Source of the DNA: Pithys albifrons albifrons
Lineage: Eukaryota > Chordata > Aves > Passeriformes > Thamnophilidae
DNA: 64,000 bases
Reading direction: 5' to 3'
Assembly (NCBI RefSeq): GCF_047495875.1
Contig: NC_092462.1
Coordinates: 31,902,023 to 31,966,022 of the forward strand
The translations under genes and the position numbers were made by a program. This document shows, piece by piece, positions 24,879 to 62,924 of this stretch; the stretch's first letter is position 1, and the number at the start of each line of letters is the position of its first letter. The notes beneath the pieces were generated by a model. That model did no database searches. It was not told the DNA's origin and saw only the letters and a list, made by a program, of their open reading frames with translations.

Positions 24879-24893
24879 TCCAGAAGAGTTTAA
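24879..24893. repeat. Target-site duplication of the 5S SINE, left copy
   Basis: TCCAGAAGAGTTTAA here is repeated exactly at 25208-25222. These are the direct repeats made when the SINE inserted by target-primed reverse transcription. Confidence 0.95.
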
Positions 24894-25090
24894 TGATGAT
24901 GATGATGGCCAGGTTTCGTGAATGAAGATTTGGGAAGGGCTCTCCCCACGTGGGTGTGTCCTTCAAGCCTGCGCAGTGGATGTTTTAGGTCAGGCACAGC
25001 GTGCACAGAACTGGCCCCACCTTTTAACTCATGAGGTTCATCTGCCATGGCCAAGTGAGCTTGGACAGTGACAGTGAAGTCCTCAGGACT

Positions 25091-25207
25091 AGAACCTTCA
25101 GCTTCAGGTATTCCCAGGAGGTCTCCCATCCAAGTACTGGCCGGGGCTGACCCTGCTGAGCTTCCGAGATCTGACGGGATCGGGTGTCAGGGTGGCATTT
25201 AACTGCC
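25091..25207 (-). other. 5S rRNA-like head of the SINE
   Basis: This is a 5S rRNA pseudogene-like module, not a functional 5S gene. It has many substitutions in the first and last thirds and is fused to unrelated sequence with no Pol III T-run terminator at the 5S 3' end. Its role is to supply the internal Pol III promoter (A-box, intermediate element, C-box) that transcribes the whole SINE. Confidence 0.9.
25120..25163 (-). promoter_or_regulatory. 5S-type internal Pol III promoter (C-box and A-box)
   Basis: Read on the minus strand, the A-box AGCTCAGCAGGGTCAG lies upstream of the C-box GTACTTGGATGGGAGACC at the spacing seen in 5S genes. TFIIIA binding is expected from 5S biology, but activity of this copy is untested. 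Confidence 0.75.
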
Positions 25208-25222
25208 TCCAGAAGAGTTTAA
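25208..25222. repeat. Target-site duplication of the 5S SINE, right copy
   Basis: An exact repeat of the 15 bp at 24879-24893. Confidence 0.95.
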
Positions 25223-58629: not shown

Positions 58630-59212
58630 CATCAAAGAATCATAGAATCACTTAGGTTGGAAAAGACCTCCAAAATCATTGAGTCCAGCCATTAACCCAG
58701 CACTGCCAAGGCCACAACTAGACTATGTCCCCTAGTGCCACATCTACACATCCTTTAAATACCTCCAGGAATGATGACTCAACCCCTTCCTGGGCAACCT
58801 GGTCTAATGCCTAAACACCTTTCAATGAAGAAAATTTTCCCAGTATAAAGTCTAAACCTCTCCCGGCTCAACTTGAGGTCATTTCATCTCATCCTGTCAC
58901 TTGTCACCCTGTAGAAAAGACCAACCAAACCTCACTACAACCTCCTTTCAGGCAGTTGCAGAGAGCTAGAATGTACCTCCCTGAACCTCCTTTTCTCCAG
59001 ACTAAATCCCCCCAGGTTCCTCAGCTGCTCCTCACAGGACATGTGCTCCAGACCCTTCACCATCTCCATTGCCATACTGCGGACACACTTCAGCACCTCA
59101 GTCTTTGTTGTGGTGAGGAACTCAAAAATGAACACAAGATTTGAGGTACAGCCTTACTAGTGCTGAGTACAGATAAGGCCCTGGTCCTGCCGGCAACTCT
59201 GTTTCTGATCAT
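58630..59212 (-). mobile_element. CR1 LINE 3' end with ORF2 C-terminus
   Basis: Read on the minus strand, the element covers the end of ORF2 and the whole 3' UTR of an avian CR1. At the right it starts with sequence encoding the last part of the reverse-transcriptase region (GCCTTATCTGTACTCAGCAC, then AGTAAGGCTG). It continues through the GGTGAAGGGTCTGGAGCACA and TCTCCAGACT-type segments and ends at the left with AGGTCTTTTCCAACCTAAG and TGATTCTATGATTC. That 8-bp-type terminal repeat is diagnostic for CR1. The insertion is 5'-truncated to about 580 bp. Short open frames on both strands at 58935-59144 lie inside the repeat and are not genes. Divergence is moderate, with several small indels. 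Confidence 0.96.
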
Positions 59213-61604: not shown

Positions 61605-61615
61605 ATTCAATATGT
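61605..61615. repeat. Target-site duplication of the RTE element, left copy
   Basis: ATTCAATATGT is repeated exactly at 62914-62924 and brackets the LINE. Confidence 0.93.
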
Positions 61616-62860
61616 CCCCCCAAGTTCCTCAAAATGATGATCCTACTACATGAGGATCAGTGTGGACAAGTCAGATATGGCGATGCACTCTCTGAGCCCT
61701 TTCCAATAACCAATGGTGTGAAACAAGGTTGCGTTGTTGCACCAACTCTATTCACAATCTTCTTCAGCATGATGCTCCAAAGAGCCACAGCAGACCTCGA
61801 TGAAGAAAACAGCATCTACATCCGATATCGTACCAATGGAAGCCTATTCAACCTAAGGCGACTGAAGGCCCACACCAAGACCCTGAATCACCTTGTCCAC
61901 GAGCTGCTTTTTGCTGATGATGCTGCCCTCGTTGCTCACACAGAAGCAGCTCTGCAGCGCTTAACATCCTGCTTTGCAGAGGCTGCTGAGCTTTTTGGGC
62001 TGAAAGTCAGCCTGAAGAAGATGGAAGTTCTCTACCAACCTGCACCTCAAGAAGTCTTCCATCATCCTCACATCACCATAGGCAATTCAGAGCTTAAGTC
62101 AGTCCAGCAGTTCACCTATCTGGGAAGTATCATTTCCTCAGAAAGTAAGATTGACAAAGAGATAGACAACAGGCTAGCAAAGGCATACAAAGCCTTCGGG
62201 AAACTCCATAAAAGAGTCTGGTCCAATAAACACCTGAAGAAAAGTACAAAGATTAGTGTCTACAGAGCCATTGTACTGTCTACTCTTTTATATGGGTCTG
62301 AATCCTGGGTCATCTATCGCCACCACCTGCGGTTTCTCGAACGCTTCCATCAGCACTGCCTCCGTTCAATCCTAAACATCCACTGGTCTGATTACGTGAC
62401 CAATGTGTCTGTTCTTGAACAGGCAGGGGTCACCAGTATCAAGACCATGCTGATGAGAACGCAGCTGCGCTGGGCAGGGCACGTCTCCAGGATGGAGGAT
62501 CACCGCCTTCCGAAGATTGTGCTCTATGGTGAACTCGCCACCGGCTGCTGCAAGAGAGGAGCCCCGAAGAAGAGATACAAGGACTCCCTGAAACAACACC
62601 TCAGCCTTGGCCATATTGACTGCCATCAATGGTCCACTCTGGCCTCCAATCGGGATTCATGGAGACACACCATTCACGACACTGCTGCTTCCTTTGAGAA
62701 TGCACGGAGAGTCAGTCTTGAGGAGAAAAGACAACGCAGAAAGAACCGTTCCTTGCCCATGTCACCTAGGGAGGCATTTCACTGTGCCTTTTGTGACCGG
62801 ACCTGCCTATCCCGTATCGGCCTTTTTAGTCACCAGCACGCTTGCAGCAAGCGTGGGTAG
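61616..62860 (+). CDS. RTE reverse transcriptase, C-terminal fragment
   Basis: The frame is open from the insertion point to a TAG stop. The first ATG is at 61634 (408 residues), but the homology starts upstream with PPKFLK, so that ATG is not a true start. Counting from it, NGVKQGC is at residues 27-33 and the catalytic FADD at 93-96, the polymerase Asp pair of RT motif C. YLGS lies at 162-165, YGSESW at 220-225 and LRWAGHVSRM at 278-287. A C-terminal zinc finger of form C-x2-C-x12-H-x3-C uses C384, C387, H400 and C404. The enzyme family makes cDNA on nicked target DNA. This piece lacks the endonuclease and RT motifs before the NGVKQGC block, and so should not be active. There is no internal stop or frameshift over 1.2 kb, which suggests a recent insertion. 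A 110-codon frame at 62607-62939 and a minus-strand frame at 62372-62629 are shadows. Confidence 0.92.
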   Translation, partial: PPKFLKMMILLHEDQCGQVRYGDALSEPFPITNGVKQGCVVAPTLFTIFFSMMLQRATADLDEENSIYIRYRTNGSLFNLRRLKAHTKTLNHLVHELLFADDAALVAHTEAALQRLTSCFAEAAELFGLKVSLKKMEVLYQPAPQEVFHHPHITIGNSELKSVQQFTYLGSIISSESKIDKEIDNRLAKAYKAFGKLHKRVWSNKHLKKSTKISVYRAIVLSTLLYGSESWVIYRHHLRFLERFHQHCLRSILNIHWSDYVTNVSVLEQAGVTSIKTMLMRTQLRWAGHVSRMEDHRLPKIVLYGELATGCCKRGAPKKRYKDSLKQHLSLGHIDCHQWSTLASNRDSWRHTIHDTAASFENARRVSLEEKRQRRKNRSLPMSPREAFHCAFCDRTCLSRIGLFSHQHACSKRG

Positions 62861-62913
62861 TGCCCTTCTCAAATCTTCGTTCGCGAAGCCTAGCCATGAT
62901 CATGACGATGATG
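61616..62913 (+). mobile_element. RTE-type non-LTR retrotransposon, 5'-truncated
   Basis: This 1,298-bp insertion is flanked by exact 11-bp target duplications. It holds the C-terminal part of a single reverse-transcriptase frame, a 3' UTR of only about 50 bp after the TAG stop, and a short GAT/CAT-type repeat instead of poly(A). Very short 3' UTRs with microsatellite tails are typical of the RTE clade. The endonuclease, the N-terminal fingers and the first part of the RT domain are missing, so the copy was truncated during insertion and cannot move itself. Its GC content and codon use stand out sharply from the AT-rich flanks. Birds as a rule carry CR1 as their main LINE; RTE elements (AviRTE) are known only in some lineages and are interpreted as horizontally acquired. 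Whether this is AviRTE is inference. Confidence 0.93.
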
Positions 62914-62924
62914 ATTCAATATGT
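62914..62924. repeat. Target-site duplication of the RTE element, right copy
   Basis: An exact copy of the 11 bp at 61605-61615, directly after the GATGATG tail. Confidence 0.93.

What the first reader, a model, noticed from the sequence alone, without database searches (positions are those of the whole stretch)
24905..24950. SINE tail matches the 3' end of the RTE LINE 38 kb away in the same window
The reverse complement of 24905-24950 aligns without gaps to 62852-62897 at 39 of 46 positions, mostly transitions, and both continue into a GAT/CAT-type repeat. The match stops abruptly upstream of this segment. A shared tail restricted to the extreme 3' end is the signature of a SINE using a specific LINE's reverse transcriptase, so this window holds both partners.
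Basis: seen in the sequence. Interest (0 to 1): 0.85.

Follow-up and report, generated by a model that had tools for sequence, protein, structure and literature searches.

The report
Bird SINE borrowing a LINE's tail
Two kinds of jumping DNA in a bird chromosome share an end because the short one very probably travels on the copying enzyme of the long one; this partnership is already published, but following the shared end also led to a less familiar short element with a double head.

Summary
The reverse complement of 24905-24950 matches 62852-62897 at 39 of 46 positions; 100 shuffled windows reached at most 30. The left element is a SINE with a 5S rRNA head and a 15-bp target duplication; the right one a 5'-truncated RTE-type LINE with an 11-bp duplication. 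Family consensuses match at 41 of 46.

The partnership is known. Suh et al. 2016 (PMC4844689) described AviRTE LINEs and the SINEs they move, including GymnSINE, a 5S-headed SINE of antbirds. As published, the tail is bipartite: 140 columns just before the shared block come from the LINE's 5' UTR (128 identical). So the sharing is not restricted to the 3' end.

Following the tail genome-wide showed a second SINE family that I did not find in print: a tRNA-Gln-like head in front of a 5S part that lacks 26 nt including box C. It made up 9 of the first 40 TCCC-form tail places on one chromosome. Tail repeat and target base co-vary among SINE copies, but this is not replicated. Interest is modest.

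The parts
24879..24893 (.). target-site duplication of the SINE, copy next to its 3' end (TCCAGAAGAGTTTAA)
   Evidence: 15 of 15 identical to 25208-25222
24894..24904 (-). short (CAT)n terminal repeat of the SINE
   Evidence: sequence
24905..24950 (-). SINE tail shared with the LINE 3' end: last two codons, stop codon and 3' UTR of the LINE
   Evidence: 39 of 46 to 62852-62897; consensus 41 of 46
24950..25089 (-). SINE body derived from the LINE 5' UTR
   Evidence: window against LINE 5' consensus, 140-column alignment, 87%; SINE consensus 128 of 140
25093..25206 (-). 5S rRNA-derived SINE head
   Evidence: Rfam RF00001, 52.6 bits, model 1-120
25208..25222 (.). target-site duplication of the SINE, copy next to its 5' end
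61605..61615 (.). target-site duplication of the LINE, 5' copy (ATTCAATATGT)
   Evidence: 11 of 11 identical to 62914-62924
61616..62913 (+). 5'-truncated RTE-type LINE copy
   Evidence: best-matching family members elsewhere in the genome at 96-97%; boundaries taken from the duplication
61634..62860 (+). open remainder of the LINE ORF, 408 aa, C-terminal part of the reverse transcriptase protein
   Evidence: the ORF listing; Pfam RVT_1 7e-12
62861..62897 (+). LINE 3' UTR, 37 nt, followed by a GAT-type repeat to 62913
   Evidence: sequence; consensus of 30 copies
62914..62924 (.). target-site duplication of the LINE, 3' copy

Best explanation
The two elements are a SINE/LINE pair of the published AviRTE system. 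The LINE is an RTE-type element, very probably AviRTE. The SINE is a GymnSINE-type element: 5S rRNA head, then 140 bp of AviRTE 5' UTR, then the last 46-47 bp of AviRTE. Inferred mechanism: RNA polymerase III transcribes the SINE from the 5S internal promoter. The LINE reverse transcriptase recognises the shared 3' block, which is predicted to fold into hairpins, and primes on nicked chromosomal DNA, making the short terminal repeat and the target duplication. Shown here: anatomy, duplications, shared blocks, copy families. Inferred: promoter activity, enzyme recognition, and identity with the published names.
For: 5S head. Target duplications on both elements. Consensus tail match 41 of 46. 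SINE 120-259 to LINE 5' UTR 128 of 140, seen in 9 of the 10 LINE 5' stretches fetched; the tenth, L091, begins inside the LINE past that region, so it could not show it. The exact 21-mer tail motif occurs 2098 times in the genome, reversed control 0. LINE protein: RVT_1. Among the 120 relatives listed of 2163, most without a name, the named birds (Pseudopipra, Manacus, Corapipo, Myiozetetes, Pitangus, Willisornis) are by my knowledge all suboscines, and the other named organisms are aquatic animals, as PMC4844689 says of AviRTE. LINE 5' UTR of about 795 bp to the first in-frame ATG (start placed where copies begin to agree) and 3' UTR of 37 bp match the published ~800 and ~40 bp. Published: GymnSINE is 5S-headed with a bipartite tail.
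Against: The published consensus sequences (supplement, Repbase) could not be read, so identity with AviRTE and GymnSINE rests on anatomy. No transcription or mobilisation was tested, and no tree places the LINE in the RTE clade. The best manakin and tyrant proteins (81-85%) match the ORF remainder no worse than the one named antbird protein (80% over 63% of it); further manakin and tyrant entries have 64-80%. Of 20 SINE copies found without the tail, 4 do not match to the end of it.
Confidence: 0.93

Rival explanations
1. The similarity is chance or a low-complexity match around the CAT/GAT repeat.
For: The block ends in a short repeat and the window copies differ at 7 of 46 positions.
Against: Shuffles reach 30 of 46 at most; 2098 exact genome-wide occurrences of a 21-mer inside the block, reversed control 0; a second, independent 140-column block from the same LINE in the same SINE.
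Confidence: 0.01
2. The SINE is an internally deleted, head-capped derivative of the LINE and not a SINE that acquired a LINE tail: a shortened LINE RNA (5' UTR joined to 3' UTR) was fused to 5S RNA by template switching. This is an origin story that can hold together with the best explanation.
For: About 187 of 305 SINE bases are LINE-derived, in LINE order. The joint CCCAC|GTGGG is an inverted repeat of 5 bp in the SINE consensus; 0.36% of 200000 random joins of LINE sequence gave 5 bp or more (looked for after the fact). Two of 40 tail-motif places (L154, L179) start at SINE position 117, where the 5S part ends.
Against: No free headless intermediate family was shown, and L154 and L179 may be ordinary 5' truncations.
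Confidence: 0.5
3. The LINE is a different RTE family of suboscines, not AviRTE, and the SINE is an independent parallel of GymnSINE.
For: The published consensuses were not available to compare.
Against: UTR lengths, host group, aquatic relatives and the bipartite-tail architecture all match the published description.
Confidence: 0.05

Closest known systems
AviRTE (Suh et al. 2016, PMC4844689; abstract, passages, part 1 of the Results and figure legends seen)
   Same: reverse transcriptase protein, about 800-bp 5' UTR, about 40-bp 3' UTR, suboscine hosts, relatives in aquatic animals
   Different: deposited sequence not compared; the window copy is 5'-truncated; nematode sharing not testable here
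GymnSINE (same paper, Fig. 1 legend)
   Same: 5S rRNA head plus bipartite tail from AviRTE 5' and 3' UTRs
   Different: published from the antbird lineage; the species here is not identified and the sequence was not compared
ManaSINE1 (same paper, Fig. 1 legend)
   Same: tRNA-headed SINE with the AviRTE bipartite tail, like the second family found here
   Different: published head is called tRNA-Glu; the head here is closest to tRNA-Gln of the three tRNAs tried (recalled letters) and stands in front of a 5S remnant; the sequences were not compared
AmnSINE1 (recalled; only search listings seen)
   Same: from memory, a SINE whose head combines 5S rRNA and tRNA parts, so a 5S/tRNA double head has a precedent
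   Different: from memory, 5S part first and a different tail; not compared here
PittSINE (PMC5729268, passages seen)
   Same: passerine SINE thought to have gained a new tRNA head by template switching
   Different: CR1 tail; no 5S part mentioned in the passages
[quoted passage not shown]
   Same: RTE-clade LINE and SINE share a 3' end; terminal repeat and first target base are correlated
   Different: there the correlation is between families; here a similar one is seen between copies of one SINE family
Ped-1 (5S head, BovB tail) and Bov-A2 / RTE1-N1_LA (5' end of RTE), Table 1 of PMC3747384 (passages seen)
   Same: 5S head with an RTE-clade tail; or an RTE 5' end with an RTE tail
   Different: mammalian; that table does not list the two features together for any of these three

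Membership tests
AviRTE (RTE-clade LINE) | RTE-type reverse transcriptase | tested here: inconclusive
   reverse transcriptase domain met: RVT_1 7e-12, relatives; placement in the RTE clade by a tree was not done
AviRTE (RTE-clade LINE) | 5' UTR about 800 bp and 3' UTR about 40 bp | tested here: met
   about 795 bp to the first in-frame ATG in the 5' consensus of 9 copies; 37 nt
AviRTE (RTE-clade LINE) | 83-99% nucleotide identity to AviRTE of other hosts and of filarial nematodes | not testable with these tools
AviRTE (RTE-clade LINE) | host in one of the seven AviRTE bird lineages | tested here: inconclusive
GymnSINE | 5S rRNA-derived head | tested here: met
   RF00001, 52.6 bits against gathering 38
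GymnSINE | bipartite tail: fragment of the 5' UTR plus the full 3' UTR of AviRTE | tested here: met
   128 of 140 and 42 of 47
GymnSINE | sequence identity to the GymnSINE consensus | not testable with these tools
SINE (general) | target-site duplications and dispersed copies | tested here: met
   15-bp duplication; a duplication called in 53 of 83 SINE copies, L051 and L149 excluded by hand
SINE (general) | RNA polymerase III transcription | not tested
   needs RNA data

The most novel reading that the evidence does not exclude
The same LINE machine carries, in this genome, an undescribed compound SINE: a tRNA-Gln-like promoter placed in front of the 5S SINE, whose own 5S promoter is crippled by a 26-nt deletion that removes box C. 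A promoter replacement in a SINE lineage would be caught with both states still present. In addition, each insertion's terminal repeat unit goes with the target base at the nick (CAT tails with T, GAT/AC/ACAT tails mostly with A), so that the RNA end helps to choose the cut.
Probability: 0.5. Interest if true: 0.45.

Novelty: already known. Interest (0 to 1): 0.3.

Why it matters
The pair is a clean example of a SINE using a LINE that was acquired horizontally according to the published work, and it supports the published bipartite-tail structure in a chromosome-scale genome. The compound tRNA+5S family and the copy-by-copy variation in terminal repeats would let specialists test how SINEs change promoters and how RTE enzymes choose the cut site; the Bov-B paper says there is no general consensus on what the terminal repeats do (PMC13295347, passage).

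Tried and rejected
Splicing as the origin of the SINE joint was considered and rejected: the LINE 5' UTR after the joint reads ATTGC, not GT.

I first thought that tail repeats were renewed at each insertion independently of subfamily: among the first 39 copies no column of 40 tested reached a corrected threshold (lowest P 0.023) and a permutation gave P 0.2. The wider sample contradicts this in part: 12 of 16 copies ending TTTGGCCAT carry ACAT repeats, and a group ending in CAC carries AC repeats (14 of 14, but that group was defined partly by its tail). So tail units are at least partly inherited.

The CAT-tail/T-start association (6 of 6 against 8 of 47) rests only on copies found with a query that itself had a CAT tail; the two other batches held no CAT-tailed copies, and the search meant to find more did not complete, so it is not replicated. 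LINE tails looked uniform: 30 of 30 continue with GA, 23 of 30 with GATGAT by my count on the listing, and 47 of 47 distinct ends with GA (partly found with a query holding the tail). But 2 of 5 LINE copies of the CCC type end in GAAT repeats.

Copies dropped before counts: L117 from the class tests; copies without a called duplication (one search keeps 27 of 39); L051 by hand and L149 by hand; L140, L151 and L154 left out of the tail table; 11 of the 94 given to one search were skipped by its rules. Searches used faulty tail-class rules and are superseded by 101 for the classes; the duplication calls of 97 are used for the compound family. My note gives the 5S deletion as about 41 bp; counted on the alignment it is 26 nt. 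ARAGORN found no tRNA in L158-L162; with a relaxed setting it called Glu weakly for three of five heads, one of these being my consensus, His for one and 54 conflicting calls for one. Rfam showed no tRNA match in L158-L162, and a 5S match in the compound element of only one of the four compound loci, below gathering (L159, 23.7 bits).

A genome-wide count of the 5S deletion joint was asked and never answered. Age comparison of SINE and LINE was dropped: the copy lists are best-match lists.

Full report
Observation. The reverse complement of 24905-24950 aligns without gaps to 62852-62897 at 39 of 46 positions, 5 of the 7 differences being transitions. The best of 100 Markov-shuffled 64-kb windows, both strands, gave 30 of 46, and the best other place in the real window 24.

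The SINE. The left element occupies 24894-25207 on the minus strand between two identical 15-bp copies of TCCAGAAGAGTTTAA. Its head is a 5S rRNA derivative (Rfam RF00001, 52.6 bits, window 25093-25206). The genome (1.14 Gb in 53 contigs; a bird, inferred from the named protein relatives) gave thousands of first-look candidates (5288, 3920; not exact copy numbers). A consensus of 20 copies runs GGCAG...GCCAT; a short repeat and, where it can be called, a target duplication follow.

The LINE. The right element occupies 61616-62913 between two 11-bp copies of ATTCAATATGT and is 5'-truncated. Its open remainder of 408 aa carries the end of a reverse transcriptase domain. Among the 120 relatives listed of 2163 (most without a name), the birds named (Pseudopipra, Manacus, Corapipo, Myiozetetes, Pitangus, Willisornis) are all suboscines by my knowledge, and the other named organisms are shrimps, sea slugs, lancelets, corals, fish and other aquatic animals. 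The best-matching places elsewhere in the genome (39 in each of two searches) are 96-97% identical to the window copy.

What is shared. Thirty LINE 3' ends were located with a query that stopped 60 bases before the end of the LINE ORF, that is without the tail. Against a rarer LINE type (5 copies) it agrees at 42 of 46. The shared block covers the last two codons, the stop codon and the 37-nt 3' UTR of the LINE. Of 20 SINE copies found with head and body only, 16 match to position 294 or beyond and 4 stop earlier (250, 265, 267, 281). The window SINE shows the same match at 25089-24950. So the SINE is 5S head, 5' UTR fragment, 3' end.

Known already. Suh et al. 2016 (PMC4844689; abstract, passages, part 1 of the Results and the figure legends seen) describe AviRTE, an RTE-clade LINE acquired horizontally by seven tropical bird lineages and by filarial nematodes, with UTRs of about 800 and 40 bp. 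All its SINEs share a bipartite tail from the 5' and 3' UTRs. GymnSINE of antbirds has a 5S head; ManaSINE1 of manakins and tyrant flycatchers has a tRNA-Glu head. Here the 5' UTR measures about 795 bp to the first in-frame ATG, with the start placed where the copies begin to agree, and the 3' UTR 37 bp. I conclude that the pair is AviRTE and a GymnSINE-type SINE.

How it works (inference from established knowledge of SINE/LINE pairs, reviewed in PMC3747384, passages). Pol III transcribes the SINE from its 5S promoter; the LINE enzyme recognises the shared 3' block and starts copying on nicked DNA. In the predicted fold of the SINE tail there are two hairpins, a 7-bp stem and a 5-bp stem CTTCG-TTCA-CGAAG; the two LINE consensuses fold differently in the same program. 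This is not proof of recognition.

Beyond the finding: genome-wide tails. The exact motif GCCCTTCYCAAATCTTCGTTC occurs 2098 times (reversed control 0); 513 are the LINE form TCTC, leaving 1585 of the form TCCC. The compound SINE has a head of about 74 nt that reads as a tRNA 5' of the 5S part. It is closest to tRNA-Gln among three vertebrate tRNAs recalled from memory (54 of 71 identical, against 44 of 69 for Glu and 46 of 68 for Asp). Its 5S part lacks 26 nt between GGTTAG and TACCGGG, which by recalled 5S numbering removes box C. Four of the nine copies have a target duplication within 5 bases of the tRNA head (L160, L161, L172, L182; two of these with one mismatch), so the head is probably the true 5' end. 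The head motif occurs 410 times with up to one mismatch. Of 314 exact shorter head ends, 245 are followed after exactly 6 nt by GGCAGTT, the start of the 5S part; reversed controls 0. Against this reading, ARAGORN and Rfam do not call a tRNA in these loci, and Rfam sees the 5S remnant in only one of four compound loci, below its threshold. So 'tRNA-derived' rests on the alignment and on A- and B-box-like letters judged by eye, and the 5S remnant on alignment to the simple SINE (78-82% for the whole body). I found no description: one held paper names GymnSINE and one ManaSINE1, both PMC4844689; no held paper has 5S rRNA, SINEs and suboscine together. The supplement and Repbase were not seen, and AmnSINE1 is, from memory, a precedent for a 5S/tRNA double head.

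Terminal repeats. SINE copies end in different repeats: CAT, GAT, ACAT, AC and others. In the first 27 copies with a called duplication, CAT-tailed ones began their duplicated target with T in 6 of 6 and the others in 1 of 21 (P 2.4e-5). Permutations that allow for overextension of the duplication gave P from 5e-5 to 0.003. In the wider set of 53 copies the figures are 6 of 6 and 8 of 47 (P 1.3e-4), but all CAT copies come from the first batch, whose query had a CAT tail. First base A: GAT tails 13 of 14, ACAT 11 of 15, AC 7 of 9. [quoted passage not shown] Tail units are partly inherited with the last bases of the SINE, so cause and direction are open.

Verdict. The compound tRNA+5S SINE and the tail/target link are modest new leads.

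Noticed in passing
L158-L161, L164, L167, L172, L178, L182 (G000 C1): A second SINE family on the same tail: tRNA-Gln-like head joined to a 5S part with a 26-nt deletion; head motif 410 places with up to one mismatch.
   Followed up: partly
L154 and L179 (G000 C1): Two SINE copies begin at SINE position 117, where the 5S part ends; L154 has a 14-bp target duplication there. Headless elements or 5' truncations.
   Followed up: no
SINE consensus about 255-264; window about 24945-24955: The joint of 5' UTR and 3' UTR pieces is the inverted repeat CCCAC|GTGGG; 0.36% of random joins do as well (post hoc).
   Followed up: partly
SINE terminal repeats, e.g. L047, L057, L114, window 24894-24904: Terminal repeat unit varies between SINE copies and goes with the first base of the duplicated target.
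   Followed up: partly
L168, L175: LINE copies of the CCC type ending in GAAT repeats, unlike the GAT-type ends of the other LINE copies seen.
   Followed up: no
window about 59000-59190: Looks like a fragment of an avian CR1 LINE (recognised from memory, no call).
   Followed up: no
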